NCBI GenBank assembly: GCA_009772925.1 | Contig: WOUQ01000005.1 | Location: forward strand, 62,001-126,000 | DNA length: 64,000 bases | Origin: a bacterium | GTDB taxonomy: Bacteria > Pseudomonadota > Gammaproteobacteria > Burkholderiales > Thiobacillaceae | Reading direction: 5' to 3' | Notes under the pieces: generated by a model | Database searches by the model: none | Told to the model about the DNA's origin: nothing | The model's input: only the letters and a program-made list of their open reading frames with translations | Translations under genes and position numbers: made by a program | Shown: one piece after another, positions 13,062 through 50,555 of the stretch | Layout: each line of letters begins with the position of its first letter | Position numbering within the stretch: the first letter of the stretch is position 1

Positions 13062-13072
13062 TGCATTACTCC

Positions 13073-33101: not shown

Positions 33102-33138
33102 GCATCCTCCCTCGGCGGCCTCACCGCCCTGATATCCG
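33102..33138 (+). repeat. Decayed terminal CRISPR repeat overlapping anbu 3' end
   Basis: Begins GCATCCTCCCTCGGCGGCC, sharing GCATC and, out of register, GGCCTCAC with the repeat. It stands 35 nt after repeat 29, exactly one spacer length. The anbu stop codon (33121-33123) lies inside it. Confidence 0.5.
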
Positions 33139-33861
33139 CTCCCAATCCAGCCCCGGCAGTTCCCCAAAGGCCTGCTTGATGCGCTCGCCCCAGGCTTCAC
33201 GCAGGTTCTTGAAATAGGGATTGTCGGCGTTGATGCGCGTCCGTCGCTCGGCCTTCAGGCTGTCGCGGCTGTAGCACAGCATGTCCAGTGGCATGCCTAC
33301 GGACAGGTTGGATTTCAGCGTCGAGTCCATGGAGATGAGGGCGCACTTGGCGGCTTCTTCCAGGGGGCTTTGCCAGTTGAAGATGCGGTCGAGGATGGGC
33401 TTGCCGTACTTGGATTCGCCGATCTGGAAATAGGGGGTGTCGGGCGTGGCTTCGACAAAGTTGCCGGCGGCGTAGATGTTGAACAGTCGCGGCTGCTCGC
33501 CGCGGATCTGGCCGCCCAGCAGGAAATTGGCGTTGAAGTCGATGTTGAAACCGGCCAGGGATTCGGCGTCGCGCCGGTGCACCTCGCGCAGGCAGTCGCC
33601 GACGTGGCGGGCGGCCTCGAACAGGTTGGGGGCGGTGAGCAGACTTTCCCCCTCCTTGCCCTGGCGCTCGAACAGCAGGCTCACCACGGCTTGGGTGATG
33701 GCTAGGTTGCCGGCGGAGAGCAAGACCAGCATGCGCTCGCCCGGCTGCTCGAAGACGCTCATCTTGCGGAAGACGTTGATCTGGTCCACACCGGCGTTGG
33801 TGCGGGTATCGGACAGGAAGACCAGGCCGGCTTCCATCAGCATGCCCACGCAGTAAGTCAC
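33121..33861 (-). CDS. Anbu-type proteasome-related peptidase
   Basis: 246 aa, Ntn-hydrolase related to HslV and the proteasome beta subunit (ancestral beta-subunit, Anbu; COG3484). Start GTG 33861 has a strong GAGGGG and gives M-T-Y-C, leaving Thr as N-terminal nucleophile after Met removal; a longer frame would destroy this. Typical sequence: TYCVGMLMEAGLVFLSDTRT, NAGVDQINVFRKMSVF, VLLSAGNLAITQAV, GGQIRGEQPRLFNIYAAGNF. Anbu is known to co-occur with ATP-grasp, alpha-E and transglutaminase genes, all present here. A sigma-54 element (33940-33955) lies upstream. Substrates unknown. Confidence 0.9.
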   Translation of the reverse strand: MTYCVGMLMEAGLVFLSDTRTNAGVDQINVFRKMSVFEQPGERMLVLLSAGNLAITQAVVSLLFERQGKEGESLLTAPNLFEAARHVGDCLREVHRRDAESLAGFNIDFNANFLLGGQIRGEQPRLFNIYAAGNFVEATPDTPYFQIGESKYGKPILDRIFNWQSPLEEAAKCALISMDSTLKSNLSVGMPLDMLCYSRDSLKAERRTRINADNPYFKNLREAWGERIKQAFGELPGLDWERISGR

Positions 33862-33927
33862 TTGTTTCCCCTCTTGAGTTGATCGGTTTGCGAATGGCCG
33901 GTCCTCCTCCCACGGAGTGCCGGCGAC

Positions 33928-33943
33928 TGGCACGCTCCTTGCA
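33928..33943 (+). promoter_or_regulatory. Sigma-54 promoter of ATP-grasp/alpha-E operon
   Basis: TGGCACGCTCCTTGCA matches TGGCACG-N4-TTGCW exactly, 28 nt before the start codon. The predicted transcript begins near 33954. Confidence 0.85.
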
Positions 33944-33955
33944 AAGATCAGGCCA
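33940..33955 (-). promoter_or_regulatory. Sigma-54 promoter of anbu, overlapping the opposite one
   Basis: On the minus strand, TGGCCTGATCTTTGCA keeps GG-N10-GC and 10 of 12 consensus positions. Its -12 TTGCA shares four bases with the -12 of the plus-strand promoter. Predicted anbu leader about 68 nt. Confidence 0.7.
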
Positions 33956-33971
33956 GAAACCGGAGCAGACC

Positions 33972-35429
33972 ATGAACAGCCTGATCGCGCACTATCCCTC
34001 GACCGAGTTCTTCGACGAACTGGTGGACGGCGAACGTCGGCCGCGCCCGGCCGCCCGCACCCTGTTCCAGCACCTGGAGGCCCTCGATGCCGCCGGCCTG
34101 GACGAGCGCCGCGAGGCGGTGAACGCGGCGATCATGACCATGGGCATCACCTTCACGGTGTACAGCGAGGCGGGCAACATCGACCGCGCCTGGCCGTTCG
34201 ACATCATTCCGCGTGTGCTGTCGCGCAGGGAATGGACGCGCATCGAGGAAGGGTTGAAGCAGCGCCTGACCGCGCTCAACCTGTTCATCGACGATCTCTA
34301 CAACGAGCAGCGCATCGTCAGGGACGGAGTGTTTCCCCTCGAAGTGCTCGAAGGGTCGCGCAATTTCCGGGCGCAGTGCAAGGGCATCACGCCCCGTTTT
34401 GGGGTGTGGGCGCACGTCTGCGGCACCGATCTGGTGCGCGACAAGGATGGCACCGTCTATGTGCTGGAGGACAACCTGCGCGTGCCCTCCGGGGTCTCCT
34501 ACATGCTGGAGAACCGGCAATTGATGAAGCGGCTGTTCCCGGACCTGTTCAGGGCTTCCGACATCCTGCCGGTGGACGATTACCCGGCCCGGCTGCACGA
34601 CACCCTGGCCGCCCTGTCGCCGCGCACCGGGCTGCGTCCGGTGGTGGTGGTGCTGACGCCGGGTATCTACAACTCGGCCTATTTCGAGCACAGCTATCTC
34701 GCCCAGAAGATGGGCGCCTTCCTGGTGGAAGGCAGCGATCTGGTGGTGGGCGAGGACGACTGCGTGTACATGAAGACCGTCTCCGGCCTGCGCCGGGTGG
34801 ACGTGATCTATCGCCGTATCGATGACGATTTCCTCGATCCCGAAGCCTTCCGCCCCGATTCGGCGCTGGGCGTGAAAGGGCTGATGCGGGCCTGGCGGGC
34901 CGGCAACGTCGGCATCGCCAACGCCCCCGGCGCCGGCGTTGCCGACGACAAGGTGGTCTATGCCTTCGTGCCGAAGGTCATCCAGTACTACCTGGACCAG
35001 GAACCCATCATCCCCAACGTGCCGAGTTACCTGTGCATGTACGAGAAGGACAAGGAATACGTGCTGGCCAACCTGGACAAACTGGTGGTGAAGCCCGCCA
35101 ACGAATCCGGCGGCTACGGCATGCTGATCGGCCCGCGCGCCACGCCGGAGGAGCGCAAGCAGTTTGCCGAGCTCATCCAGGCCAACCCGCGTAACTACAT
35201 GGCGCAGCCCACCCTGGCGCTGTCCACCGCGCCCACCCTGGTGGACCACCACCTGGAGCCGCGCCACCTCGACCTGCGCCCCTTCATCCTGCAGTCCGAC
35301 CGGCTCTACTGCACCACCGGCGGCCTCACCCGGGTGGCCATGAAATCGGGTTCCCTGGTGGTCAACTCGTCGCAGGGCGGCGGCGCCAAGGACACCTGGA
35401 TCGTCGACATGGGCGAGGGAGAAGAATGA
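33972..35429 (+). CDS. Circularly permuted ATP-grasp protein (DUF404/407)
   Basis: 485 aa, predicted ATP-dependent carboxylate-amine ligase that may form peptide or isopeptide bonds; no substrate is established. Start ATG 33972 (MNSLIAHYPSTEFFDELVDG) after GGAG. Family stretches: GITFTVYSEAGNIDRAWPFDIIPR (part: TVYSEAGNIDRAWPFD), VLEDNLRVPSGVSYMLENR, TPGIYNSAYFEHSYLAQKMG, and the ATP-binding VVKPANESGGYGMLIGP (about 373-390). Overlaps the alpha-E gene by 4 nt. A fused paralogue lies at 44522-47035. Confidence 0.9.
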   Translation: MNSLIAHYPSTEFFDELVDGERRPRPAARTLFQHLEALDAAGLDERREAVNAAIMTMGITFTVYSEAGNIDRAWPFDIIPRVLSRREWTRIEEGLKQRLTALNLFIDDLYNEQRIVRDGVFPLEVLEGSRNFRAQCKGITPRFGVWAHVCGTDLVRDKDGTVYVLEDNLRVPSGVSYMLENRQLMKRLFPDLFRASDILPVDDYPARLHDTLAALSPRTGLRPVVVVLTPGIYNSAYFEHSYLAQKMGAFLVEGSDLVVGEDDCVYMKTVSGLRRVDVIYRRIDDDFLDPEAFRPDSALGVKGLMRAWRAGNVGIANAPGAGVADDKVVYAFVPKVIQYYLDQEPIIPNVPSYLCMYEKDKEYVLANLDKLVVKPANESGGYGMLIGPRATPEERKQFAELIQANPRNYMAQPTLALSTAPTLVDHHLEPRHLDLRPFILQSDRLYCTTGGLTRVAMKSGSLVVNSSQGGGAKDTWIVDMGEGEE

Positions 35430-36397
35430 TGCTGTCGCGCGTCGCCGAGAACCTCTACTGGATGGCCCGCTACCTGGAGCGGGCCGAGAACACCGCCCGC
35501 TTCATCAACAGCACCACCCAGGTGCTGCTGGACCTGCCGCGCGGCGCCTCCTTCGGCTGGGACGTGCTGCTCAAGGCGGCGGGCCTGGATGCGCTCTACG
35601 ACGAGCACTACGGCCAGCCCAACGAGGCGGACATCATGCGCTTCCTGATCCTCGACGAGCGCAACCCCAGCTCCATCGTCGCCAGCATCCACAGCGCGCG
35701 CGAGAACACCCGCACCTTCCGCGAAGTGCTGCCGATGGAAATGTGGGAGCGCATCAACGGGCTCTATCTCTACATCCGCGATCATGCCGCGCGCGCCGCC
35801 CGCGGCCGCGGACCGCGCTGGGAGGTGCTGAATGGCGTCATCGAGCGCCGCCAGTCGATCATCGGCCTGCTCACCGGCTCGATGAGCCACGACCTCGCCT
35901 ACCAGTTCCTCAAGCTGGGCCGCAACGTGGAGCGGGCGGACATGACCACACGCATCCTCGACGTGAACTCGGCGGTGCGCCTGCCCAGCGACACCACCGC
36001 CCCCGAGACCGCGCGCGAGCGCCTGTGGATGAGCACCCTGAATGGCCTTTCGGCCTACCAGATGTATCGCCTGCACGTCGGCGTGCACGTTTCGGGGCCG
36101 GCCGTGCTGCGCTTCCTGCTGGCCGACCCGCACTTCCCGCGCAGCGTCAGCCATTGCCTGGGCGAAATCGAGAACTGCCTGTGCGACCTGGTCAACTACG
36201 AGGAACCCCTGAAGGTGGCCCGCTATGCCTGGAAGCGCCTCGATGGCGAACGGCTGGACGACCTCACCGCGGAGAACCTGCACGACCGCCTGGACCAGAT
36301 GCAGGGCGACCTGGCCGAACTGCACACCGCCATTTCGCGGCAGTACTTCCATCTGCACCAGCAGAGCGCCCTGCCGGAACAGACCCTGAGCCAGTGA
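35426..36397 (+). CDS. Alpha-E domain protein (DUF403)
   Basis: 323 aa, all-helical. Start MMLSRVAENLYWMARYLERAENTAR is the alpha-E signature; later MSHDLAYQFLKLGRNVERADMTTRI repeats the LGRxxERAD pattern. Proposed partner of ATP-grasp ligases in peptide synthesis or tagging. Translationally coupled to the upstream ligase (ATGA). Confidence 0.92.
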   Translation: MMLSRVAENLYWMARYLERAENTARFINSTTQVLLDLPRGASFGWDVLLKAAGLDALYDEHYGQPNEADIMRFLILDERNPSSIVASIHSARENTRTFREVLPMEMWERINGLYLYIRDHAARAARGRGPRWEVLNGVIERRQSIIGLLTGSMSHDLAYQFLKLGRNVERADMTTRILDVNSAVRLPSDTTAPETARERLWMSTLNGLSAYQMYRLHVGVHVSGPAVLRFLLADPHFPRSVSHCLGEIENCLCDLVNYEEPLKVARYAWKRLDGERLDDLTAENLHDRLDQMQGDLAELHTAISRQYFHLHQQSALPEQTLSQ

Positions 36398-36443
36398 ATC
36401 CGTCACGCAAACCCCTTCTTTCCCAGACCCCGCCCACCTCGCC

Positions 36444-37697
36444 ATGATCCCCCCATCCCTCGACTTCCCCCGCTACGGTGACAAGGAAAACTCGGATTTC
36501 TTCGAGGAATACCTGGTGCAACTCCTGGAGGAACGCGACCGCAGCGGCCTCACCCACGAGATCCGCCAGATCGACGCTCTCATGATCACCGTGGAGCCGG
36601 GCCACTCCATCGCCTACGTGGGCGAGCTGTGCCTGATGACCCCCTACCACTACCTGGTCACCCTGGAGTCGGAAAGCCATTTCACCCACGTGCTGCGCAT
36701 CGACATGAGCGCGCCGGACGTGCTGGTGCGCGAGGTCAAGGACCCCGCCACGCGCGGCATCTTTCGCAGCCTCAACGAGGTCTATCCGATCGGCGCGAAG
36801 AAACCCAACTCACGCTACATGGGAGAGATATTCCGCGTCGGCAGCCTGCACGACGTGGTGGACTTGCAGAAATCGCGCGACGTGCGCTTCTTCGACCAGG
36901 ACCAGATCCGCAAGCTGGAACTGCCGGGCAACATGGCGGTGGTGAAGCCCAGCCCCTACACCCACAACATCGTCGGCTACTGGGAACGGCCCGAGGCCCA
37001 CATTCGCGTCTACGCCCTGGGCATCTCCAGCATCCGCGCCGATGTGCAGGCCGCCTACCAGGCGGCCAAGGAAACCCAGGAAAAACTGGGCCTCGACAAG
37101 CTGCTGCTGCCCATCGACCACCTGGCCACGCGCGTCTACAGCCAGAACCGCGAGGCGGCCATCCTCGAATACCTCACCCTGACCAGCTACTACTACTGGG
37201 GCTCCTACGACATCGCCGACCAGAACTCCTCCACCAACGTCACCAAGAGCGTGCACTTCGCCAACGAGCTGGAGAGCCCGGCCAAGGTGTTCACCGCCGC
37301 CAACCACCCGTATTTCGTCAACCACCTGCTGCAACTGCCCTCCCCCACCGAGGCCTTCGTGCGCAATTACGGCCCGCGCCTGCACCACCTGGCGGTGGCG
37401 GTGAACGACGGCAAGACCCACGGCAAGGCCAACATCGACTACGTGGTGGACGCCCTTCGCGACTGCGGCCAGGACTTCCTGCTGGACGTGATCGGCAGCG
37501 AGGAGGAGGGCTTGAAGCAGATATTCTCCAGCGCCTCCGAGTATTCCAGCCTGATCATCGAATACGTGCAGCGCTTCGGCGACTTCCAGGGCTTCTTCAC
37601 CAAGGGCAACGTGGCCCGGCTGACCCACGCCGCCGGCGTCGAGGAACAACTGCGCGCCATGGACGAGGCGGCGCGCAAGGCGGACGTGGCGGCCTGA
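36444..37697 (+). CDS. VOC/HPPD-like protein of unknown function
   Basis: 417 aa, follows the alpha-E gene by 46 nt on the same strand. The N-terminal 180 residues are not recognised (YGDKENSDFFEEYLVQLLEE, MTPYHYLVTLESESHFTHVL). The C-terminal part looks like a vicinal-oxygen-chelate domain of the 4-hydroxyphenylpyruvate dioxygenase type: PRLHHLAVAVNDG with a candidate metal His, then SSLIIEYVQRFGDFQGFFTKGNVARL with a candidate Glu (parts: LIIEYVQRFG). Tandem metal ligands are not fully identified, so activity is not claimed. Possibly acts on products or substrates of the neighbouring ligase. Confidence 0.45.
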   Translation: MIPPSLDFPRYGDKENSDFFEEYLVQLLEERDRSGLTHEIRQIDALMITVEPGHSIAYVGELCLMTPYHYLVTLESESHFTHVLRIDMSAPDVLVREVKDPATRGIFRSLNEVYPIGAKKPNSRYMGEIFRVGSLHDVVDLQKSRDVRFFDQDQIRKLELPGNMAVVKPSPYTHNIVGYWERPEAHIRVYALGISSIRADVQAAYQAAKETQEKLGLDKLLLPIDHLATRVYSQNREAAILEYLTLTSYYYWGSYDIADQNSSTNVTKSVHFANELESPAKVFTAANHPYFVNHLLQLPSPTEAFVRNYGPRLHHLAVAVNDGKTHGKANIDYVVDALRDCGQDFLLDVIGSEEEGLKQIFSSASEYSSLIIEYVQRFGDFQGFFTKGNVARLTHAAGVEEQLRAMDEAARKADVAA

Positions 37698-37863
37698 GTT
37701 GGTGCGTATTCCGCTGAAACCGAATGCCCCGGTAGGACCGGCTGGCGATGCAACCGGGTTTTCTCACCCGCCGCTCCGCGTTGGCCTGTTATCCCCGAAT
37801 GGGGGCTCGCGGGGAGAAGCGACGAAACAAAGACCGTCGGGCACCTCCATCCACCCTGAACAG

Positions 37864-37933
37864 GTCATTCCGGCGCAGGCCGGAATCCAAAAAAATCAAC
37901 GACCTGGACACCGGACAGTGCCGGTGTGACGAC
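37864..37933. repeat. REP-like element of a third family
   Basis: ATTCCGGC-GCAG-GCCGGAAT (37867-37886) and CACCGG-ACAGTG-CCGGTG (37909-37926), bounded by GTC and GAC. The 320-nt gap 37698-38017 also has CCCCGAATGGGG near 37792; I see no gene in it. Confidence 0.65.
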
Positions 37934-37975
37934 TGATTGAGGTACCCAGTCAGACATTGCTGTCGCGGCCGCGCA

Positions 37976-38002
37976 GTATTACATTCATAGGCACAGTAAT
38001 AC
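37976..38002. promoter_or_regulatory. Probable operator of AbrB/PIN module
   Basis: Inverted repeat GTATTAC-N13-GTAATAC ends 15 nt before the antitoxin start; CAGGAG overlaps the space to the ATG. Typical place for autorepression. Confidence 0.55.
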
Positions 38003-38017
38003 CTCAGGAGTCATCAA

Positions 38018-38251
38018 ATGGCGACGACACTCACCAGCAAAGGACAGGTCACCATCCCAAAGCAGATCCGCGATGCGCTGAATCTGGCGCCTGGCTGCGC
38101 CGTGGATTTCGCGGTGAATCGCGAAGGCGATGTTGTCATTCACAAGGTCGGCGCGCTGCCTAATCGCAAGCCGGATCGCTTCGAGGCGGCGCGCGGCAAG
38201 GCCGATGTGAAGTGGCGCACCGACGATCTGATGGCCCTCTTGCGCGGCTAG
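38018..38251 (+). CDS. AbrB/SpoVT-type antitoxin
   Basis: 77 aa. Swapped-hairpin DNA-binding domain MATTLTSKGQVTIPKQIRDAL, then APGCAVDFAVNREGDVVIHK. C-terminal tail (DDLMALLRG) for PIN binding. Start supported by CAGGAG. The toxin starts 5 nt later. Confidence 0.9.
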   Translation: MATTLTSKGQVTIPKQIRDALNLAPGCAVDFAVNREGDVVIHKVGALPNRKPDRFEAARGKADVKWRTDDLMALLRG

Positions 38252-38256
38252 GCCTG

Positions 38257-38658
38257 ATGCTGCTGGTCGATACCAATGTGTTGGTCGACGTTTTGGAGGA
38301 CGATCCGGCATGGGCGGACTGGTCCATCAGCCAACTGCGGGCGCAGTCCAAGATTCACCGCCTGGCCATCAATCCGATTATCTACTCGGAGTTGTCGCTG
38401 ACGTTTTCCACGGTCGAGGGTCTGGATCGAACCATTGATGACCTGGGTCTGACGATGATCGAGATTCCACGACCAGCGTTGTTCCTTGCCGGCAAGGCCT
38501 TCGTGCGCTATCGCCGGCAGGGTGGCGAGAAGCAGAACGTGCTCGCCGACTTCTTCATCGGCGCCCATGCCGCTGTCTCACGCTACCCGATCCTGACCCG
38601 GGATAGCCGACGCTACAACACCTATTTTTCAGACGTGAAATTGATCACGCCCGAGTAA
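38257..38658 (+). CDS. VapC-like PIN-domain toxin
   Basis: 133 aa from ATG 38257 (MLLVDTNVLVDVLEDDPAW). Conserved acidic residues: D5 region, E in PIIYSELSLTF, D in ADFFIGAHAA and D in LTRDSRRYNTYF. Predicted RNase inhibited by the AbrB-type partner. Confidence 0.9.
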   Translation: MLLVDTNVLVDVLEDDPAWADWSISQLRAQSKIHRLAINPIIYSELSLTFSTVEGLDRTIDDLGLTMIEIPRPALFLAGKAFVRYRRQGGEKQNVLADFFIGAHAAVSRYPILTRDSRRYNTYFSDVKLITPE

Positions 38659-38711
38659 GCGTCCGCCCCTCCCACCTCCCCATTTCCAGCCAAGGCGACG
38701 ACCCCGCGTAG

Positions 38712-38890
38712 ATTCTCCCCGAGGAGCGGCGCAAGGACGGCCCACAGCCCACGCAGCAGGCATTCTGGTACGCCCACCTCCTTGCCTGGCGCGAGAGTGG
38801 ACTGACGCAATGCGCCCTGGCCGACTGGATGGGGGCATCGGTGTCGCTCTGCAACCGCTGGCGGATCGTCTGGCCGAGTGGCTCAGGCAG
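38712..38890 (+). pseudogene. Remnant of IS66-type accessory gene (TnpA-like)
   Basis: After a stop, the frame reads EERRKDGPQPTQQAFWYAHL, LAWRESGLTQCALADWMGAS and VSLCNRWRIVWPSG. The W..SGLTQ....F..W pattern is that of IS66 accessory proteins. No start, no transposase, no inverted repeats seen: a dead fragment. Confidence 0.55.
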
Positions 38891-38945
38891 GCAGACCTGC
38901 CCTGCGTATGGTCATTCTGCAATCAAAATACGCTAGCATATACTC

Positions 38946-39200
38946 ATGAATGCCAAGCATCGTAAGACCCTCCGCGCCATTTTCGCCAAGCCGACCTCCG
39001 TCTCCATCGTCTTCTCTGACATCGAGGCACTGATCGTCGCATTCGGTGGCGAGGTCATCGAACGCGAAGGCTCCCGCGTGAAGATCCTTCTGCGCGAGGA
39101 GCAATGGCGATGCCACCGTCCCCACCCAGGCAAGGAGGCGAAACGGTATCAAGTCGAAGAAGCCAGAGAACTATTGGAAAGAACAGGAAACGCACCATGA
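38946..39200 (+). CDS. hicA: HicA-family toxin
   Basis: 84 aa. MNAKHRKTLRAIFAKPTSVS, then IEALIVAFGGEVIEREGSRV and CHRPHPGKEAKRYQVEEARELL. This is the subgroup whose active-site His lies in HRPHPGKE. mRNA interferase by family knowledge. Overlaps hicB as ATGA. Confidence 0.88.
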   Translation: MNAKHRKTLRAIFAKPTSVSIVFSDIEALIVAFGGEVIEREGSRVKILLREEQWRCHRPHPGKEAKRYQVEEARELLERTGNAP

Positions 39201-39529
39201 ACACCATGACCCACAAGGGCTACACCGCCCGCATCGAATACGACGAGCGCGACAACCTCTTTGTTGGACGCATTCTGGGTTTGCGCGCCATGATCAGCTT
39301 CCATGGCAGTACAGTCGATGAACTGCGCAGAGAATTCGAGGCCGCCGTCGAGGACTATCTGAGCGACTGCGCGCAGCAGGGCATCACGCCGGAAAAAACA
39401 GTCTCCGGGAAGCTGATGCTGCGGGTGCCGCCGGAAGTCCACAGTGCCGCCCTGATCGCGGCTCAGTCGTCGGGCAAAAGCCTGAACCAATGGGCCACCG
39501 AAGTGCTGAAAAGCGCGGCGCATGCATGA
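39197..39529 (+). CDS. hicB: HicB-family antitoxin
   Basis: 110 aa from ATG 39197. HicB fold YTARIEYDERDNLFVGRILG, then STVDELRREFEAAVEDYL; C-terminal ribbon-helix-helix LRVPPEVHSAALIAAQSSGK with SLNQWATEVL. Represses its own operon by family knowledge. Confidence 0.88.
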   Translation: MNTMTHKGYTARIEYDERDNLFVGRILGLRAMISFHGSTVDELRREFEAAVEDYLSDCAQQGITPEKTVSGKLMLRVPPEVHSAALIAAQSSGKSLNQWATEVLKSAAHA

Positions 39530-39571
39530 TATGGGTCGCCTTGACTCATCCAACCGTGGATTCCAAATGCA

Positions 39572-39726
39572 GCGCCTCGTTCATCATGAACTTCATGTTG
39601 CCGGTGCCGGAGGCCTCCTTGCCGGCTGTGGAATTTGGGGTCGGGCACCTCGCCGACGAGGATGTCGCGGGCGGTATCGATACGGTGTTTGGTATCGGTG
39701 TCGAGCCCGGGAATTCCTGAAACGGA
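39572..39726 (-). pseudogene. Chimeric debris: hsdM-like piece joined to a glgP piece
   Basis: Minus strand from 39726: SVSGIPGLDTDTKHRIDTAR, DILVGEVPDPK, resembling N-6 DNA methylase (HsdM-type) sequence as I recall it. It runs straight into a glycogen phosphorylase piece (KEASGTGNMKFMMN) in another frame. The last 60 nt (39572-39631) match 41407-41466 in glgP with two mismatches. No start codon. Confidence 0.6.
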
Positions 39727-40266
39727 TTACTCGGGCGGGAAGCGCAGCTTCGAAAAGCTGCGCCCGGCCTGGATGGCGCGCCGCTCGATATCCGCCGCCG
39801 ATTCAAGCCAGCCTTGCTGCTTCAGAAACAACAGGTAGGCGCGGGTGCTGATCTTGCGGCAGTTGTCGGGCAGCAAAAAGCTGGCGCGGGCGATTTTGTG
39901 ATCCTCGAACAGGAACACGCCGGTTTGTCGCGGCTGGCCGGGAATGATTGCTTCCAGCGCAAAGGCGTTCATGGTCTCCTGGATCGCCAGTTCGCCAAGA
40001 TTGGCGGTGCGCGCGGCGGCGGGGTTTGCCCCCAGCGTTTGCCGGTGGTGCTGGAAGGTGCGGGTCGAGCGCACCGATACTTGGCCGGCGGCGGCCCACT
40101 TTGCCAGTTTCTCGCTGGTCGGCGTCTGGTTGCGGGTCACTTCGTGCAGCACCATATCGACCAGCACAATCGGCCAGCCGGGCTTGCACAGCAGTTCGAG
40201 CGCATCGGCATAGGCCAGCGTGATGAGCGGCCCGGCGTCAGGCAGCAGAGCAACATTCGCGGCCAT
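39727..40266 (-). CDS. PIN-like toxin candidate
   Basis: 179 aa. ALLPDAGPLITLAYADALELL has the D-x-GPLI-x-LA start of PIN-like (DUF3368-type) proteins; IVLVDMVLHEVTRN supplies an acidic residue. The rest (ANLGELAIQETMNAFALEAI, TGVFLFEDHKIARASF) fits an RNase fold with a DH motif. Follows a ribbon-helix-helix-like antitoxin by 10 nt. Confidence 0.65.
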   Translation of the reverse strand: MAANVALLPDAGPLITLAYADALELLCKPGWPIVLVDMVLHEVTRNQTPTSEKLAKWAAAGQVSVRSTRTFQHHRQTLGANPAAARTANLGELAIQETMNAFALEAIIPGQPRQTGVFLFEDHKIARASFLLPDNCRKISTRAYLLFLKQQGWLESAADIERRAIQAGRSFSKLRFPPE

Positions 40267-40276
40267 TGCGAGCGGC

Positions 40277-40624
40277 TCAGCCGGCCAGCGATTTCAGTTG
40301 CTCGACCATGTCGCCCGTGACGGCATCGGGCAAGCGCGGCATCGGCAGGTGGGCTTGCGCCATCAACAGGAACAAATCTTCCTCGCTGTCGATCCCCAGC
40401 GCGCGCATGGCTTCGTCGCCCGCGAGCCGCCCCAGCGAAAAGTCGAGCAGCCGCCGGTAATTCTGGTTGCCTGTCGCTTCGGCCGCCTCGAAAGTTTCGA
40501 CCAGATGGCGAAGCTCGGCGTTGAACAGCGCATTGACCGAGGTGTCGGTCTTGGCAGCAATGATTTTGGCGCGCTTGAGCAAATCGCGATCAACCGCGCC
40601 GGTGAAATTCACGGTGGTTGCCAT
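40277..40624 (-). CDS. Antitoxin candidate of PIN module
   Basis: 115 aa. TTVNFTGAVDRDLLKRAKII, then AAKTDTSVNALFNAELRHLV looks like a ribbon-helix-helix DNA-binding unit; the C-terminal half (LGIDSEEDLFLLMAQAHLP) is acidic. First gene of the minus-strand pair. Confidence 0.65.
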   Translation of the reverse strand: MATTVNFTGAVDRDLLKRAKIIAAKTDTSVNALFNAELRHLVETFEAAEATGNQNYRRLLDFSLGRLAGDEAMRALGIDSEEDLFLLMAQAHLPMPRLPDAVTGDMVEQLKSLAG

Positions 40625-40642
40625 GATCTTGACCCCATGGGA

Positions 40643-40912
40643 TTAACACATAAATAAGTGTATCACTTGAATCTGTGTGCCTGAAACCGCGCCAGTGTCG
40701 AGCACGAAGACCTTCTCCAGGTTTCCGCGCAGGGTCAGACGGCGGCCCACGGCGGCGGCCTTGCGCAGCTTGTCGAGGGTTTAGTACTCCTCGGGCTTGT
40801 CGAGGACTTCGCGGTTGACGTAATCGATCACACGGCCCCATTGCCCGGCTTCCACAGCAGGGGAGACGGTGTCATCGGCGCGCATCACGTCTTCAAATTT
40901 CTCTAAGGGCAT
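40643..40912 (-). pseudogene. Remnant of type I restriction subunit hsdR (C-terminal part)
   Basis: Reads MPLEKFEDVMRADDTVSPAV, EAGQWGRVIDYVNREVLDKP, EEY-stop-TLDKLRKAAAVGRRLTL. Intact HsdR proteins have PEEYYTLDKLRKAA here, so one Tyr codon became TAA (40781-40783). The frame goes on through the next antitoxin's promoter to a TAA at 40643. Rest of hsdR absent. Confidence 0.75.
40656..40668. promoter_or_regulatory. Possible operator of RHH/PIN module
   Basis: AAGTGTATCACTT is a short perfect dyad (arms AAGTG/CACTT) about 32 nt before the antitoxin start, in an AT-rich patch. Confidence 0.4.
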
Positions 40913-40924
40913 GCGGCCGCCGCC

Positions 40925-43465
<2,541 letters not shown>

Positions 43466-43610
43466 GCAAATAGGATGCCGGCTTTTTTCCGCGCCCTGCC
43501 CCCGCGATTCCAGGGGATTCCCGCCACTGCCAGGACGCGCGCGCACCGATCCGGCACAACGCGCCCCGCAATGGCGCGGCCGCTTTCAGATTCTTCGCGG
43601 CGGCCGGCCC

Positions 43611-44519
43611 TCATCCGGCATGGTCGCCCGCCGGCACGCGGCTCACCGTCACCCCCACCTCCAGGCTGTGCATGCCGCCGCCGTAGATCACCCCCTTGAG
43701 GGGCGCCACGTCGCCGTAGTCGCGGCCCCAGGCCAGGGTGAGATGGCCCTCGCCGGCGGGGCCGCCGTTGGTGGGATCGAATTCGAACCAGCCCTGATGC
43801 GGCAGGTAGACCGCCATCCAGGCGTGGGAAGCGTCAGCGCCTTCCAGCCGGGGCTGGCCCTCCGGCGGCGTGGTCTCCAGGTAGCCGCTGACGTAGCGGG
43901 CGGCCAGGCCGAGGCCGCGCAGGCCGGCGATGGCCAGGTGGGCAAAGTCCTGGCAGACGCCGTGGCGTTCGGCCAGCACCTCGGCGAGCGGCGTGTCGAT
44001 GCGGGTGGCATTGGGCCGGTAGCGGAAATCCGCGTGGATGCGGGCGGCCAGATCGGCCACCGCTTGCAGCAGGGGGCGGCCGGGCGGGAAGCTGGCCCGG
44101 GCATAGTCCAGGGCGGCGCTTTCCAGGGGCACGAAGGCGGAGGGCAGGCGGCATTCGCGGGCCAGGATGCAGTCGTCGCCCGCTTCCTCGGCCTCGCCGA
44201 TGGGCCGCGCCAGGTGGGCGGCCACCTCTTCCCAGGGCGGTGAGGCGTTCGGCAGGTCGGTGACGACCCGCTCCACCAGGCTGCTGGCGGTGACGGCGAG
44301 CCCCGCGTGCGGCCGGCGCAGGGTGAACCAGGTGACCCGGTTGCCCCAGGCATCCAGCCGGTCATGCCGGTCGTCCCCACCGGGGTCGAGTTCGAGGCGG
44401 CTTTCCAGCACCCGCTGGCCGGGGGTGTCCCGCGGCAGCAGGCGGGCCTCGCCGTAATTGAGGCCGATGTCCTGCGCGTAGCGGTAACGGTTGACGTGGT
44501 GGATGCGGAAGCGCGGCAT
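43611..44519 (-). CDS. Transglutaminase-like cysteine protease family protein
   Basis: 302 aa from ATG 44519 (MPRFRIHHVNRYRYAQDIGL). N-terminal Bact_transglu_N-like domain (GEARLLPRDTPGQRVL, RLDAWGNRVTWF). Catalytic triad complete: C189 (RHGVCQDFAHL), H232 (DASHAWMAVYLP) and D248 (WFEFDPTNG). May cleave or form amide bonds. Last gene of the DUF2126 operon; 2 nt after the ATP-grasp/alpha-E fusion. Confidence 0.9.
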   Translation of the reverse strand: MPRFRIHHVNRYRYAQDIGLNYGEARLLPRDTPGQRVLESRLELDPGGDDRHDRLDAWGNRVTWFTLRRPHAGLAVTASSLVERVVTDLPNASPPWEEVAAHLARPIGEAEEAGDDCILARECRLPSAFVPLESAALDYARASFPPGRPLLQAVADLAARIHADFRYRPNATRIDTPLAEVLAERHGVCQDFAHLAIAGLRGLGLAARYVSGYLETTPPEGQPRLEGADASHAWMAVYLPHQGWFEFDPTNGGPAGEGHLTLAWGRDYGDVAPLKGVIYGGGMHSLEVGVTVSRVPAGDHAG

Positions 44520-44521
44520 GG

Positions 44522-47035
44522 TCAGCCCTCGCTCCCCGCCGCGAGCAGCACGTGCTGTTCCTGCACGTGGGTGAACCAGGCGTGGGTGACGGCGTCGGAG
44601 GTGCTCGCCAGCAGGCCGCCCAGTTCGCGCAGGATGACGATGAGGCGCTGGCGCTCGCCGGCGTCGACGATCAAGTCCTCCACCATCGCTTCGCTGGCGT
44701 GCAGGCGTTCCTCGGCGCTGAACAGCAGGCGCTCGGCGCGGCCGCGCTGGCCGGTCGCGGTGAGTTCCTGCAGATGGCGGCGGGCGGTGCGCAACTGGTA
44801 GATCAGGGAGCGGGGGCTGTCGGTGTCCCACAGCAGCAGGTCCAGCAACCCGGCGAGGAAGGGTTCGCTGCGGTAGCGGCGGCGGAAGGTGACCAGACTG
44901 TCGGCGCTTTGCAGGACCAGGGACAGGCTTTCCCGCTCCGCCTCTCCGGCAAGACCCGATTCCAGGGTGCGGGAGAGCAGCAGCGCCTGCGTCTGGCCGC
45001 GTTCGATGCGGCGCCCAAGGTCGAAGAAACGGAAGGCGGCTTCCCGCGACAGGGTTTCCGAAGCCAGGCCGGCGAGGCCGGCCAGGGCGTCGATGAGGCG
45101 ACCCAGCCAGAGATCGGTGCGTTCCCGTCCGGCTTCGCCGCGGGAACGGATCCTGGCGTGGGATCCCCAGTCCCGCTCGACCCGGTCCAGCAGCCGCCAG
45201 ATGGCCACCGACCAGTATTCGCGGGTGCCGTAGGCGCAGGCCAGCAGGGCGCGCACGGAGTGGGCCAGGTTGCCGGGCCGGTCGGGCTGGGTGGTGAGTT
45301 CGCGCACGCAGGCCGACAGGTCGGAGCGCTCGGCGCAGCCGCACTCGCCCGGCGCATAGCCCATGAGGCCCATGAGGGCCTCCAGCACCGGACCCAGTCC
45401 CGGCGTGGTCTCCTCTTCCCAGAGGCCATCCAGCACCGCCCGCAGCAAGCGGGCCACGGCTTCCGCGCGCTCCAGGTAGCGGCCGGCCCAGAACAGGTTG
45501 TCCGCCGCCCGGCTGGTGAGGAGACCGCTCTCCCGCCGGTGAGGCGTGGCGCTGGGGCCTTTCTGGGGCAGACGGGCGGGGGCGATCCAGGTGTCCTTGT
45601 TGAGGGCGCCGCGCTGGCCGGAGAGCTTGCCGCCGCTGGCGCAACGGGCGAGGCCGCCGGGCAGGGCGGCGTAGCCCGCGCCGTCCGCCCGCGCCACCAG
45701 GAAGGCGCGCAGGCTGGCGCGATGCGGCGTCAGGCGGCCGCCGTGCAGGGCGGGTACCGTCGACAGGGTGAGGGGCTCCTGGCCCACGTAGAGATGAGGC
45801 TGGGCGCGGATGCGGTCTTTCCAGGCGGCAAGCTGCTTGCGGTCCAGGTCAGCGCCGAACACCGTCTCGCAGGAATAGCCCCGGTTGATGGGCTTGAGCA
45901 CCAGGCGGGCGAGGTTGGCGAGGACGTGCGCCTTCTCCTGCTCCTGGCCGCACCACCAGGTGGCGGCGGTCGGCAGCAGCAGTTCCTCGCCCAGCAGGAT
46001 CCGGGCCAGGGCCGGCAGGAAGGGCATCAGGGCCGGGTTCTCCAGCAGGCCGCTGCCCAGGGGGTTGGCCAGGGCCACCTGGCCGCGCCGCACTGCCTCG
46101 ACCAGGCCGGCGGTACCCAGGCGGGAATCGGCGCGCAGTTCCAGGGGGTCGCACCATTCCTCGTCCACCCGGCGCAGGATCACGTCCACCGGCTTCAGGC
46201 CCTGCACCGATTTCAGCCAGACACGGCCGTCCTTGACGGTGAGGTCGTCGCCCTGGGCCAGGCTGTAGCCCAGGCGGGCGGCGAGATAGGCGTGCTCGAA
46301 ATAGGTTTCGTTGGCGGGGCCGGGGCTCAGCACCACCACCTGGGGAATCTCCCGCGCCCTGTCCGCCAGGGCGTTGAGGCTGGCCTGCACCGTGTCCAGC
46401 CAGGCGTTGAGGCGCACCACCCGGTTGCTTTCCAGCAGTTCGGGGAAGGTGCGCGCCATCACCGAGCGGTTCTCCAGGGCATAGCCGGCGCCCGAGGGGG
46501 ACTGGGTGCGGTCGGCCATGACCCAGACGCGGCCGTCGGGGCCCCGCGCCAGGTCGGCGGCATAGAAGATGAGGTGATGGCGATGCGCCGGCAGGGCGCC
46601 CAGCAGGGGACGCAGGTAGCCGGCGTGGCCGAGGATCAGTTCGGGCGGCAAGAGGCCGCGCCTGAGCAGGGTTTGCGGGCCGTACAGGTCGCGCAGCACC
46701 AGGTCCAGCAGGCGCGCCCGCTGTTCCAGGCCAACCTCGATCGCGGCCCACTCGCCGGCGCCCAGCACCAGGGGAACCGGGTCCAGTTCCCAGGTGCGGG
46801 TGTAGCCGCGGGGGTCGTCGTAGACATGGTAGGTGACGCCGTTTTCCCGCAGCAGCCGCTTGATGCGCTGGTTGCGCGCCGACCAGTCGCGGGCGTCGAG
46901 GCCGGCCAGCCCTTCCACCAGTTGCCGCCAGTGCGGGCGCACGCCCGCCTGCGGATTCCACATCTCGTCCCAGGCGTCCGGGAGGGAGTGGTAGTCCGGG
47001 GTGTCAGGAAACAGCGAAGTCTGCGACAAAGTCAT
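44522..47035 (-). CDS. ATP-grasp / alpha-E fusion protein
   Basis: 837 aa. Residues 1 to about 480: circularly permuted ATP-grasp ligase (GVTYHVYDDPRGYTRTWELD, MADRTQSPSGAGYALENRSV, PGPANETYFEHAYLAARLGY, LVLKPINRGYSCETVFG). Residues about 505-830: alpha-E domain (SGLLTSRAADNLFWAGRYLERAEAVARLL, part: AADNLFWAGRYLERAEAVAR; FFDLGRRIERGQTQALLL). Same two domains as the separate genes at 33972-36397, here in one chain. Overlaps the DUF2126 gene by 4 nt. Confidence 0.92.
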   Translation of the reverse strand: MTLSQTSLFPDTPDYHSLPDAWDEMWNPQAGVRPHWRQLVEGLAGLDARDWSARNQRIKRLLRENGVTYHVYDDPRGYTRTWELDPVPLVLGAGEWAAIEVGLEQRARLLDLVLRDLYGPQTLLRRGLLPPELILGHAGYLRPLLGALPAHRHHLIFYAADLARGPDGRVWVMADRTQSPSGAGYALENRSVMARTFPELLESNRVVRLNAWLDTVQASLNALADRAREIPQVVVLSPGPANETYFEHAYLAARLGYSLAQGDDLTVKDGRVWLKSVQGLKPVDVILRRVDEEWCDPLELRADSRLGTAGLVEAVRRGQVALANPLGSGLLENPALMPFLPALARILLGEELLLPTAATWWCGQEQEKAHVLANLARLVLKPINRGYSCETVFGADLDRKQLAAWKDRIRAQPHLYVGQEPLTLSTVPALHGGRLTPHRASLRAFLVARADGAGYAALPGGLARCASGGKLSGQRGALNKDTWIAPARLPQKGPSATPHRRESGLLTSRAADNLFWAGRYLERAEAVARLLRAVLDGLWEEETTPGLGPVLEALMGLMGYAPGECGCAERSDLSACVRELTTQPDRPGNLAHSVRALLACAYGTREYWSVAIWRLLDRVERDWGSHARIRSRGEAGRERTDLWLGRLIDALAGLAGLASETLSREAAFRFFDLGRRIERGQTQALLLSRTLESGLAGEAERESLSLVLQSADSLVTFRRRYRSEPFLAGLLDLLLWDTDSPRSLIYQLRTARRHLQELTATGQRGRAERLLFSAEERLHASEAMVEDLIVDAGERQRLIVILRELGGLLASTSDAVTHAWFTHVQEQHVLLAAGSEG

Positions 47036-50000
47036 TCAGGCTGGCGGCGGAGATCCAGGGTGTAAGGATACTCGGCCAGCAATTCCTCCGGCGGCGGCGC
47101 CATGGGGCCCAGGCGGCCGCCTTGCGGATGAAACTCGGCCAGGCGCGCCAGGTCCGGAGGCACAGGCAGAGCGCCGGGGGTGTGGCCCCAGGGCTGGTAG
47201 CGGTTGACCCGGCGCGCCTCGGCTTCGAAGGCATTCACCGGGAACACGTCGTAGCTGCGGCCGCCGGGATGGGAGACGTGGTAGGTGCAGCCGCCGATGG
47301 CCTTGCCGCTCCAGGTGTCAATGAGGTCGATGATGAGCGGCGAATGCACGCCGATGGTGGGGTGCAGGGCGGAGGGCGGCTGCCAGGCGCGGTAGCGGAT
47401 GCCGGCCACGTATTCGCCGTGGCGGCCGGTGTTGCGCAGGGGCACCCGGCGGCCGTTGCAGGCCAGCACGTAGCGGTTGTCGGTCAAGCCTGTGACCTTG
47501 ACCTGCACGCGCTCCACCGAGGAATCGACGAAGCGGGCGGTACCGACGTTGGTGAGTTCCTCGCCCAGCACGTGCCAGGGTTCCATGGCGCTCCTGAGCT
47601 CGATCTCGATGTCGTCGATCTTCACCGTGCCGATGCGCGGGAAGCGGAACTCGATGAAGGGGTCGAGCCAGTCGTCCTGGTAGGGGAAGCCTGCCTCGCG
47701 CACGTCGGAGAGGGCATCCAGCACGTCGGCGCGCACGTAATGAGGCAGCATGAAGCGGTCGTGCAGTGCCGTGCCCCAGCGCACCAGCTTGTGCCGGTAG
47801 GGCTGCTCCCAGAAGCGCGCCACCAGGCAGCGCAGCAGCAGCATCTGCGCGGCGCTCATCTGCCAGTGCGGCGGCATCTCGAAGCCGCGGAACTCCACCA
47901 GACCCTGGCGACCGCTTGGGCTGTCCGGGGAATACAGCTTGTCGATGGAGAACTCGGAGCGGTGGGTGTTGCCGGTGAGGTCCACCAGCAGGTTGCGCAA
48001 CAGCCGGTCCACCAGCCAGAGCTGGCTCACTTCTCCCTTCGGCATCTGCTGGAAGGCGATTTCCAGCTCGTAGAGCTTCTCGTCGCGGCCCTCGTCGACG
48101 CGCGGCGCCTGGCTGGTGGGACCGATGAACAGGCCGGAGAACAGGTAGGACAGGCCGGGATGGTGCTGCCAGAAGGTGACCAGGCTCATGAGCAGGTCGG
48201 GCCGGCGCAGCATGGGGCTGTCCCGCGGCGTGGGACCGCCCAGGGTGACGTGGTTGCCGCCGCCGGTGCCGGTGTGGCGCCCGTCCAGCATGAATTTTTC
48301 CGTGGTCAGGCGGGCCAGGCGCGCCTCCTCGTAGAGGTCGCGGGTGTTGGCCACCAGTTCGTCCCAGGACCGGGCGGGGTGGATGTTGACCTCGATGACA
48401 CCCGGGTCCGGCGTCACCATGAGACGCTCGATACGGTAGTCCCGCGGCGGCTCGTAGCCTTCCAGGATGACCGGGGTTCGCAGTTGGCCGGCCACGTCCT
48501 CGATGGCGGCGGTGAGGGCCAGGTAGTGTTCCAGCACCGAGAGGGGCGGCATGAAGATGCGGATGACGCCCTGGCGGGCTTCCACGCAGAGAGCGGTATG
48601 GGGGACTTCGACAAGGGCTCCGGCACGACGGTTTGCTCCCTCTCCCGCTTGCGGGAGAGGGAGCAAGGCGTCAGCCAGGCCTTGGCGCTGGATCTCCGGG
48701 TGGCTGGGCAATTCCGGCTCGAAGGCGGAGAAGCGCCGGGCGATCTCGCCGTAGCTGTCGGGCAGCGCCTCCCGCGGCGCGAACATGTCCAGGGGCCAGG
48801 GCATTTCCCGCTTGTCCTCGGCCACCCAGGGCAGGCTGGCCAGGGGCAGGCGCAGGCCCATGGGAGAGTCGCCGGGCATCAGGTAAAGGCGGCCACGCCT
48901 GAACTCCCAGGGACCGGTCTTCCAACCGCCGTTGCTCCAGCACCAGGCCAGGGGCAGGGCATAGCCCACCGGCTCGTCCAGACCCCGTGACAACTTCTCG
49001 GCCAGGCTGCGTCGTTCCTGGGGGTCCTTCAGGTTGGCCTTGGCCGGGTCCAGGTTGGCCGGGACCTCGGCTTCCTTGAGCAGGTAGTACAAGGCGTCCT
49101 CGTAACCCGGCTGGATGGCGCGGGCGGGCAGATCGAGGCGCTCGGCCAGGGCCTTCATGAAAACGGCGGCATGGGCGGCGGTATGGCCATAATCCTTGCC
49201 CTCGTCGGCCAGCAGCCCCGGATTCTTCCAGAGCGGCACGCCATCCGTCCGCCAGAACAGGCCCAGGGCCCAGCGCGGCAAGGGCTCGCCCGGATACCAC
49301 TTGCCCTGGCCGGAAAATCGCAGGCCGCCGGGCGCGAAGCGCGCGCCCAGCCGCTGCCACAGGTCCTGGGCCCGCTCCAGCTTGTGGGCGCCGAGGGCGG
49401 CGCTGTTCCACTGGGCCGACTCCATGTCGTCAATGGAGATGAAGGTGGGTTCGCCGCCCATGGTCAGGCGCACGTCCTGGAGGGCCAGCCGCTGATCCAC
49501 GGCCCGGCCCAGGGCATCGATGGCGACCCACTGGTCATCCCGGTAGGGTTTGGTGACGCGGGGATCCTCGTGGATGCGGGTAACGGTGTTCTCGAAGCTG
49601 AAGCTCACCTCGCAGGGGTCGGTGGCCCCGGTGACCGGGGCGGCGCTGACCGGGTCCGGCGTGCAGGCCAGGGGAATGTGGCCCTCGCCGGCGAACAGGC
49701 CGGAGGTGGGATCCAGTCCGATCCAGCCGGCGCCGGGCACGAAGACCTCGGCCCAGGCGTGCAGGTCGGTGAAGTCCGCCTCCGGGCCCGAGGGACCGTC
49801 CAGGGACTTCTGGTCGGCGGTGAGCTGCACCAGGTAGCCCGACACGAAGCGGGCGGCGAAACCCAGGTGGCGCAGGATGTTGACCAGCAGCCAGGCGCTG
49901 TCCCGGCAGGAGCCCAGGGCCCGCTCCAGGGTTTCCTCGCAGGTCTGGATGCCGGGCTCCATGCGCACGGTGTAGCGGATGTCCTGCCACAGGCGCTGGT

Positions 50001-50445
50001 TCAGCGCCACCAGGAAGGGCACCATGGCTTCCTTGTCCCGTTTCACGCCATCCAGCCACTGCATCAGCAAGGCGCCGGATTCGGCCAGTTCCCGGTAGGG
50101 AATCAACTCCTTGGCCGACTGGGCGTCGTAGTCGAAGGGATAGTGCTCAGCGTGCTCCTCCAGAAAGAAATCGAAGGGATTGATCACCGTCATGTCGGCG
50201 ATGACCTCCACCTCGATGCCGAAGCGGGTGGTCTTCTCCGGGAAGACCAGGCGGGCCAGGAAGTTGCCGAAGGGATCCTGCTGCCAGTTGATGAAGTGCT
50301 TCTCCGGACTGACGCGCAAGGAATAGCCCAGGATGGGCGTGCGACTGTGCACCGCCGGGCGCAGGCGCAGAACGTGAGGGCCCATGCTCACGGGCCGGTC
50401 ATAGTGGTAATGGGTCTTGTGACGGATGGCGACGCGGATGGTCAT
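47032..50445 (-). CDS. Transglutaminase-DUF2126 (putative amidoligase) protein
   Basis: 1137 aa from ATG 50445 ([20 protein letters not shown]). N-terminal transglutaminase domain with triad C180 ([12 protein letters not shown]), H229 ([13 protein letters not shown]) and D245 (GLDPTSGLF). The large C-terminal DUF2126 region ([59 protein letters not shown]) is classed as a putative COOH-NH2 ligase. About residues 594-604 ([12 protein letters not shown]) are encoded by a REP-like palindrome in frame. First gene of the operon; sigma-54 element and leader terminator lie upstream. Presumed to make and break amide bonds with its two operon partners; substrate unknown. Confidence 0.9.
48635..48664. 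repeat. REP-like palindrome inside the DUF2126 gene
   Basis: GCTCCCTCTCCCGC / GCGGGAGAGGGAGC with a TT centre: a perfect 14-bp-arm palindrome, read through as PLPQAGEG on the minus strand. Same family as the hemF copy. Confidence 0.85.
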
Positions 50446-50458
50446 GGCGGTCTCGGCC

Positions 50459-50480
50459 AAAAAAAACGCCCGGCAGGGCG
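50459..50480 (-). terminator. Intrinsic terminator in the DUF2126 leader
   Basis: CGCCC-TGCC-GGGCG (6 bp with the flanking A-T) then eight T, only 13 nt before the start codon. No minus-strand gene ends here, so it can only act on the operon's own leader. No ANTAR hexaloop found. Confidence 0.6.
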
Positions 50481-50539
50481 TGGACAAGGGGAGGAGAGGA
50501 GCATGTTGTGGTTATGAGGGGAAATCACGGCCCGATCCT

Positions 50540-50555
50540 TGCAAGAGGGATGCCA
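50540..50555 (-). promoter_or_regulatory. Sigma-54 promoter of DUF2126 operon
   Basis: TGGCATCCCTCTTGCA keeps GG-N10-GC and 10 of 12 consensus positions. About 95 nt before the start codon. Confidence 0.7.

What the first reader, a model, noticed from the sequence alone, without database searches (positions are those of the whole stretch)
33121..50555. Anbu / ATP-grasp / alpha-E / transglutaminase systems appear to be nitrogen-regulated through sigma-54
Three transcription units of this poorly understood amidoligase system (anbu; ATP-grasp-alpha-E-VOC; DUF2126-ATP-grasp/alpha-E-transglutaminase) each begin with a sigma-54 -24/-12 element. In the same window the clearly nitrogen-related nrtA and nirB units carry the same class of promoter. 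An exact GCAC-N7-GTGC NtrC dyad stands about 120 bp before the DUF2126 promoter. This suggests a nitrogen-starvation function, for example making or recycling a peptide or polyamide nitrogen store, with Anbu as the peptidase. The gene association is known; the shared regulation is my inference.
Basis: partly seen in the sequence, partly recalled or inferred. Interest (0 to 1): 0.87.

Follow-up and report, generated by a model that had tools for sequence, protein, structure and literature searches.

The report
Nitrogen-starvation switches for Anbu genes
Genes of a poorly understood enzyme system built around the proteasome relative Anbu carry nitrogen-starvation switches in this bacterium and in many relatives, which fits earlier expression studies and tells under which conditions its unknown job should be looked for.

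Summary
A consensus -24/-12 element lies before the ATP-grasp gene (33928 +); weaker ones precede anbu and DUF2126, and an exact NtrC-type dyad stands about 110 bp above the DUF2126 element. The weak sites mean little alone; comparison decides. Strong elements precede the ATP-grasp gene in 43 of 64 anbu loci (0.9% of random stretches; 2 of 363 other genes) and DUF2126 in 8 of 24 (1.2%); exact dyads are enriched at both. The anbu promoter itself is only suggestive. The regulation is largely in print: nitrogen induction in P. putida, NtrC/sigma-54 dependence in B. cenocepacia. Against: a P. putida rpoN mutant still induced three genes of the operon, and a class-wide sample shows 5 of 27. New here: six Polynucleobacter-type genomes without rpoN keep NtrC as their only strong enhancer-binding protein, with an altered GAFTGA loop, and an exact dyad before the Anbu operon; in the one genome scanned it is one of six such sites, four others being at glnA, amt and PII loci. 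Storage is untested; scavenging is likelier.

The parts
33928..33943 (+). sigma-54 -24/-12 element of the ATP-grasp/alpha-E/g4 unit (TGGCACGCTCCTTGCA)
   Evidence: no mismatch; identical in the window and 4 of 4 closest relatives while the spacer diverged
33940..33955 (-). candidate sigma-54 element facing anbu; shares TTGCAA (33939-33944) with the + element
   Evidence: 2 mismatches; minus-strand TGGC at the right spacing in 5 of 5 sequences, TTGCAA in 4 of 5; suggestive only
33121..33861 (-). anbu (proteasome-like Ntn hydrolase), likely GTG start at 33861; Thr1, Asp17, Lys32 present
   Evidence: matches solved Anbu structures 5loy, 5nyw, 5nyj, 5nyf, 5lox (E 1e-101 to 7e-77)
33972..35429 (+). 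circularly permuted ATP-grasp protein (DUF404/407)
   Evidence: PF14403 E 2e-164
35426..36397 (+). alpha-E protein (DUF403)
   Evidence: PF04168 E 6e-87
36444..37697 (+). g4: conserved 417-aa protein in no Pfam or NCBIfam family above cut-off; perhaps a VOC-fold Fe(II) dioxygenase (invariant His226, His315, Glu373; reading recalled)
   Evidence: best Pfam hint Glyoxalase_4 E 0.09; 64-91% identity to 9 full-length copies in anbu regions
43688..44555 (-). transglutaminase-like protein, third gene of the DUF2126 unit
   Evidence: PF08379, PF01841
44522..47035 (-). ATP-grasp/alpha-E fusion protein
   Evidence: PF14403, PF04168
47032..50448 (-). transglutaminase-DUF2126 putative amidoligase (ORF opens at 50487; likely ATG at 50448)
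   Evidence: (on 47032-50487): PF09899 1316 bits, PF08379, PF01841
50540..50555 (-). sigma-54 element of the DUF2126 unit (TGGCATCCCTCTTGCA)
50665..50679 (.). NtrC-type enhancer dyad GCACCATGGCGGTGC, about 110 bp above the DUF2126 element
   Evidence: one of 7 exact TGCACY-N5-RGTGC sites in the genome
13179..13194 (-). sigma-54 element of the nrtA-like (nitrate ABC transporter) unit
20819..20834 (-). sigma-54 element of the nirB (nitrite reductase) unit
20887..20901 (.). NtrC-type dyad GCACTGGATGGGTGC above nirB

Best explanation
The ATP-grasp/alpha-E/g4 unit and the DUF2126 unit, and perhaps anbu itself, belong to the nitrogen-limitation regulon. Phosphorylated NtrC binds GCAC-N7-GTGC dyads upstream and activates RNA polymerase with sigma-54 at -24/-12 promoters (DNA elements and regulators shown; activation in this organism inferred from homologues). 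The DUF2126 unit has its own dyad; the ATP-grasp/anbu divergent promoter has a consensus core but no nearby dyad, so its activator site is unknown. The promoter is kept in most of the 64 examined loci, which come from a capped list of best matches dominated by Betaproteobacteria. In Polynucleobacter-type genomes NtrC control seems to have outlived sigma-54: rpoN is gone, NtrC stays with an altered sigma-54-contact loop, and the dyad remains before the operon. The enzymes most likely help to scavenge nitrogen, for example by ATP-dependent amide capture of an amine or peptide followed by hydrolysis through the transglutaminase-like protein and Anbu; this last step is inference, at about 0.35. 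The stated confidence is for the regulation.
For:: strong element (score 16.8 or more) before ATP-grasp in 43 of 64 loci, 23 of 64 at full score, against 0.9% and 0.27% of random stretches and 2 and 0 of 363 other genes in the same loci. DUF2126, 8 of 24 at score 17.4 or more (control 1.2%), exact dyads 9 of 24 (4.7%); exact dyads 15 of 64 (control 1.9%); own NtrC (702 bits, GAFTGA kept) and RpoN (462 bits). Polynucleobacter case; of 7 exact TGCACY-N5-RGTGC sites in the genome (reversed control 3), four lie above an amt-type gene, above nirB, above DUF2126 and inside a gene that looks like ntrB. Passages of papers: NtrC and sigma-54 dependence in B. cenocepacia, log2 -6.0 to -9.4 in the ntrC mutant; nitrogen induction in P. 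putida.
Against:: in a P. putida rpoN mutant PP_2686-2688 were still induced 14-20-fold, as were urtABCD (7-17-fold), so either control there is sigma-54-independent or that mutant result is unusual. In the same table anbu itself (PP_2685) changed only 1.1-fold in the wild type, though 11-fold in another study; in a class-wide sample only 5 of 27 ATP-grasp genes have a strong element; no dyad near the ATP-grasp promoter in this genome; other perfect sigma-54 sites of this genome stand before, for example, a flagellin-like gene, so sigma-54 does not by itself mean nitrogen; no Pfam family occurs in more than 2 of 69 flanking proteins scanned, so the neighbourhood lends no support.
Confidence: 0.82

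Rival explanations
1. One reading: the amidoligases make a peptide or polyamide nitrogen store and Anbu recycles it.
For: Ligases and a putative peptidase appear co-regulated; the Y. bercovieri ATP-grasp protein releases phosphate from ATP.
Against: Starvation is the wrong time to start storing nitrogen (inference); no Anbu peptidase activity was detected; many co-regulated genes elsewhere are for scavenging.
Confidence: 0.12
2. Protein tagging and turnover: ATP-grasp and transglutaminase-like proteins modify proteins, which Anbu degrades to free amino acids during nitrogen starvation.
For: Proposed in the literature as quoted; Anbu keeps Thr1, Asp17 and Lys32.
Against: No AAA+ partner known, no stable interactions and no peptidase activity found.
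Confidence: 0.28
3. The anbu/ATP-grasp palindrome (TGGC-N7-TTGCAA-N7-GCCA) is the operator of a dimeric regulator rather than two back-to-back sigma-54 promoters.
For: Near-symmetrical in the window and its four closest relatives: outer TGGC/GCCA in 5 of 5, TTGCAA in 4 of 5.
Against: In many other loci the element is a one-sided TGGCAY-N5-TTGCT with sigma-54 spacing, and no element is found in the 6 genomes without rpoN.
Confidence: 0.07
4. The weak anbu and DUF2126 elements are chance matches and only the ATP-grasp unit is sigma-54-controlled.
For: Two-mismatch sites are not in clear excess in the window.
Against: DUF2126 upstream regions are enriched for elements and dyads in 24 genomes; for anbu the evidence is only suggestive.
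Confidence: 0.12

Closest known systems
Anbu operon PP_2685-2688 of Pseudomonas putida (Hervas et al. 2008, 2009, seen only as cited in PMC5666114, PMC6376114, PMC7801951)
   Same: Anbu-like and transglutaminase genes (the other two taken to be alpha-E and ATP-grasp by position); induced by nitrogen limitation, attributed to NtrB/NtrC
   Different: One operon there; here anbu is divergent and g4 follows alpha-E where a transglutaminase gene is usual; induction of PP_2686-2688 persisted in an rpoN mutant there
I35_5080-5083 of Burkholderia cenocepacia H111 (PMC5491218, passages)
   Same: DUF404/407, DUF403 and two transglutaminase-domain genes, dependent on NtrC and sigma-54
   Different: Shown by mutants there, inferred from DNA here; the word proteasome does not occur in that text
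Sigma-54-independent NtrC of Rhodobacter capsulatus and Caulobacter (PMC10274813, passages)
   Same: NtrC without an intact GAFTGA loop, acting at sigma-70 promoters
   Different: There the loop is deleted; in the six Polynucleobacter-type genomes it carries one change (GAFPGA or GAFQGA), together with loss of rpoN and of all other strong enhancer-binding proteins

Membership tests
Anbu | Sequence match to solved Anbu proteins | tested here: met
   5 distinct sequences, E 1e-101 to 7e-77
Anbu | Catalytic Thr1, Asp17, Lys32(33) (named in PMC6376114) | tested here: met
   T3, D19, K34 of the first sequence, invariant in 14 of 14
Anbu | Co-occurrence with CP-ATP-grasp, alpha-E and transglutaminase | tested here: met
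   ATP-grasp and alpha-E adjacent; transglutaminases in the DUF2126 unit about 10 kb away
Anbu | Peptidase activity | not testable with these tools
   none detected in the published assays seen
Sigma-54 promoter | GG and GC 10 bp apart within TGGCAY-N5-TTGC | tested here: met
   full consensus at ATP-grasp, 2 mismatches at anbu and DUF2126
Sigma-54 promoter | Transcription start about 12 bp below the -12 element and dependence on rpoN | not testable with these tools
   needs RNA
NtrC regulon | NtrC and RpoN in the genome | tested here: met
NtrC regulon | GCAC-N7-GTGC enhancer upstream: DUF2126 unit | tested here: met
NtrC regulon | GCAC-N7-GTGC enhancer upstream: ATP-grasp unit in this genome | tested here: not met
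   none 20-400 bp above the start with up to 1 mismatch, in the window; exact in 15 of 64 loci
NtrC regulon | GCAC-N7-GTGC enhancer upstream: anbu | tested here: inconclusive
   exact dyad 483 bp upstream inside the ATP-grasp gene, in the window and its four closest relatives, but explained by conserved protein sequence and common codons

The most novel reading that the evidence does not exclude
The Anbu amidoligase operon is a core member of the NtrC regulon: when the Polynucleobacter lineage lost sigma-54 and every other strong enhancer-binding protein, it kept NtrC, altered its sigma-54-contact loop, and, to judge by exact dyads in the one genome scanned, kept direct NtrC control of only a few loci: glnA, an ammonium transporter, a PII-gene locus and the Anbu operon. 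The system would then be as central to life at low nitrogen as control of glutamine synthetase.
Probability: 0.6. Interest if true: 0.68.

Novelty: new member of a known kind. Interest (0 to 1): 0.52.

Why it matters
Anbu has solved structures but no known substrate or activity. Conserved NtrC-type control, apparently kept even after loss of sigma-54, says that assays should be made under nitrogen limitation and compared with other nitrogen-scavenging routes. The Polynucleobacter case would also be a betaproteobacterial example of NtrC working without sigma-54; the paper search made for it found none.

Tried and rejected
A first promoter pattern had a spacer one base too long and was replaced. 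Structure prediction of g4 failed (mean pLDDT 40), so no fold search was made; PDB searches by sequence and by profile found nothing. An enhancer inside the ATP-grasp gene was considered: an exact dyad lies there in the window and its four closest relatives, but in only 6 of 67 ATP-grasp genes with the scanned motif, all 6 with protein sequence GTDLVR, so codons explain it. Flanking genes: 69 proteins scanned of 148 listed for 40 loci; no Pfam family in more than 2 of 69 (25 of 75 families shown). An independent rpoN loss was sought: of 47 further anbu genomes, G038 (81% complete) has no match and G176 only a 91-codon open frame at rpoN. G176 keeps GAFTGA in its NtrC-like protein and has neither element nor dyad before ATP-grasp, so it does not repeat the Polynucleobacter pattern. 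G038 was not followed up. Paper searches that found nothing: Polynucleobacter with NtrC and rpoN; Anbu with ATP-grasp and peptidase since 2018; passages of PMC5748707. Hervas 2008 and Iyer 2009 are not held and are cited only through papers that quote them. All other papers were seen as passages or search listings, none whole.

The motif weights, the NtrC dyad and the VOC metal-ligand reading are recalled and come from no call; the -24/-12 consensus GGcacg-N4-ttGC is also quoted.

Full report
WHAT IS THERE. The block holds anbu (33121-33861, -), a divergent unit of ATP-grasp, alpha-E and g4 (33972-37697, +), and a separate unit DUF2126 - ATP-grasp/alpha-E fusion - transglutaminase (50448 down to 43688, -). 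The nearest anbu genes (81-90% identical) are in four records, one of them labelled Hydrogenophilales; I take the host to be of that group, which I did not test. Perfect elements occur 10 times in the genome (reversed control 1), three of them here, at nrtA, nirB and ATP-grasp. Others lie before a flagellin-like gene or elsewhere, some inside open frames, so the sigma factor alone does not imply nitrogen. The anbu and DUF2126 elements have two mismatches, and such sites are not in clear excess in the window (25 found, 19.5 expected).

COMPARATIVE TEST, ATP-GRASP UNIT. Of 81 records (window plus 80), 64 have an ATP-grasp start with enough upstream DNA; 16 have no ATP-grasp match and one (L082) is truncated. 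With a simple weighted score that requires GG and GC, 23 of 64 reach the maximum (0.27% of random 320-bp stretches), 38 of 64 reach 17.4 (0.6%) and 43 of 64 reach 16.8 (0.9%). Among 363 other genes of the same loci with intergenic upstream DNA, 0 reach 17.4 and 2 reach 16.8. The loci are related (many Paraburkholderia), so the counts are not independent events. In the window and its four closest relatives the 16 bases are identical although the spacer is not. Four loci below the threshold (L101, L104, L109, L115) have near-consensus elements with TTGAT or TTGTT at -12 (no control was run for that relaxed scan).

COMPARATIVE TEST, DUF2126 UNIT. The window and 23 of the 30 loci fetched were used; the other seven match only the transglutaminase part. 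Of these 24 upstream regions, 8 reach 17.4 (control 1.2%), 9 reach 16.8 (1.5%) and 14 reach 15.8 (7.3%). Exact GCAC-N7-GTGC dyads are in 9 of 24 (control 4.7%), 55-143 bp above the best-scoring element, start to start; in three of the nine (L143, L147, L150) that element is weak (15.4). Exact dyads are also in 15 of 64 ATP-grasp upstream regions (control 1.9%), and dyads with up to one mismatch in 50 of 64 (control 27%). This genome's ATP-grasp promoter is among those without one.

LIMITS. In a class-wide draw 48 of 185 genomes have anbu. From 43 of the 47 besides the window's own, 45 regions were fetched; 27 had a usable ATP-grasp start. Of these, 5 reach 16.8 (control 0.7%), 2 reach 17.4 (0.2%), and 4 have an exact dyad (control 3.2%). 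The control is therefore a feature of some lineages, above all the betaproteobacterial ones, and not of Anbu everywhere.

REGULATORS. The genome has one rpoN (462 bits) and an NtrC with GAFTGA (702 bits). Of 7 exact TGCACY-N5-RGTGC sites in the genome (reversed control 3), one is above an amt-type gene, one above nirB, one above DUF2126 and one inside a gene that by sequence and place looks like ntrB; the other three are not at recognisable nitrogen genes.

THE POLYNUCLEOBACTER CASE. Fifty anbu genomes were searched for rpoN and ntrC: all 41 relatives scoring below the maximum and 9 of the 22 at the maximum. Six lack rpoN: L098, L100, L116, L120, L123, L124. Three are named Polynucleobacter; several are metagenome assemblies, while L120 lies on one contig of 1.98 Mb in a genome of about 2.0 Mb. 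None of the six has an element, against 29 of 44 with rpoN at 16.8 or more; the six are probably one lineage, so the test value overstates independence. All six keep NtrC (649-658 bits), their only strong match to the sigma-54-activator domain, the rest scoring below 30 bits. The GAFTGA loop reads GAFPGA in five and GAFQGA in one, while the five NtrC proteins taken from genomes with rpoN read GAFTGA. All six keep an exact dyad 52-53 bp before the projected ATP-grasp start, in a conserved stretch. Such a close dyad is not unique to them: L068 (-51) and L101 (-55), both with rpoN, have one too. In L120's genome, the one scanned, there are six exact GCACY-N5-RGTGC sites (reversed control 3): two before glnA, one before an amt-type gene, one before a locus with a PII-type gene, one before the Anbu operon and one inside a hydrolase-like gene (gene names by eye). 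NtrC without GAFTGA acting at sigma-70 promoters is known from Rhodobacter and Caulobacter (PMC10274813, passages). G176, with only an rpoN remnant, keeps GAFTGA and has neither element nor dyad, so the pattern rests on one lineage.

WHAT IS KNOWN (passages only). Anbu is upregulated in nitrogen-limited P. putida (PMC5666114; PMC6376114). PP_2685-2688 are attributed to NtrB/NtrC (PMC7801951), and PP_2685, PP_2686 and PP_2687 rose 11.1-, 6.6- and 7.1-fold under nitrogen limitation (PMC3325844). In B. cenocepacia H111 the cluster I35_5080-5083 depends on NtrC (log2 -8.2, -9.4, -9.4, -6.0) and sigma-54 (PMC5491218). DUF403, DUF404 and DUF407 track urea-metabolism domains in marine metagenomes (PMC3597751). 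Against: in PMC7801951 the rpoN mutant still induced PP_2686-2688 14-20-fold, and anbu itself (PP_2685) changed only 1.1-fold in the wild type. The promoter conservation and the Polynucleobacter case I did not find in the searches made.

FUNCTION. Regulation says when the system works, not what it does. Much of its co-regulated company in B. cenocepacia is nitrogen scavenging, so I favour capture or breakdown of a nitrogenous substrate through amide chemistry over a storage polymer. The chemistry is not shown. g4, which recurs in anbu regions (9 full-length copies and one partial besides the window's, among 125 regions examined), may be a VOC-type dioxygenase by its invariant His226, His315 and Glu373; the family, PDB and structure attempts do not confirm it.

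On going through the calls I corrected the anbu start (33861), the palindrome spacing (N7), the wording on the L120 genome (not proven complete), and added the weak induction of PP_2685 in PMC7801951 and the close dyads in two loci with rpoN.

Noticed in passing
window 33939-33944: Two opposed -24/-12 elements share one TTGCAA core between anbu and ATP-grasp, so two polymerases could hardly bind at once; a possible bidirectional, mutually exclusive sigma-54 promoter.
   Followed up: partly
window 36444-37697: g4, a strongly conserved 417-aa protein (64-91% identity to 9 copies) beside anbu, in no Pfam or NCBIfam family above cut-off.
   Followed up: partly
window 13060-13120 and 20730-20800: The leaders of nrtA and nirB share a GC-rich inverted repeat followed by a T run on the minus strand, which looks like an attenuator of the NasT/ANTAR kind (recalled); no Rfam match at gathering level.
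   Followed up: no
window 31040-33066: CRISPR array, 28 repeats matched by Rfam CRISPR-DR9, between cas genes (cas3 at 20862-23585, cas4 at 27952-28800) and anbu.
   Followed up: no
window 40925-43546: Glycogen phosphorylase gene directly below the DUF2126 unit on the same strand.
   Followed up: no
L168, L169, L172 (Polynucleobacter-type NtrC): The Walker B stretch LDEIGD reads LGEVGD or LGEIGD in three of six, suggesting that ATP hydrolysis is dispensable there.
   Followed up: no
L203 (G084): Two anbu copies about 6 kb apart in one cluster.
   Followed up: no
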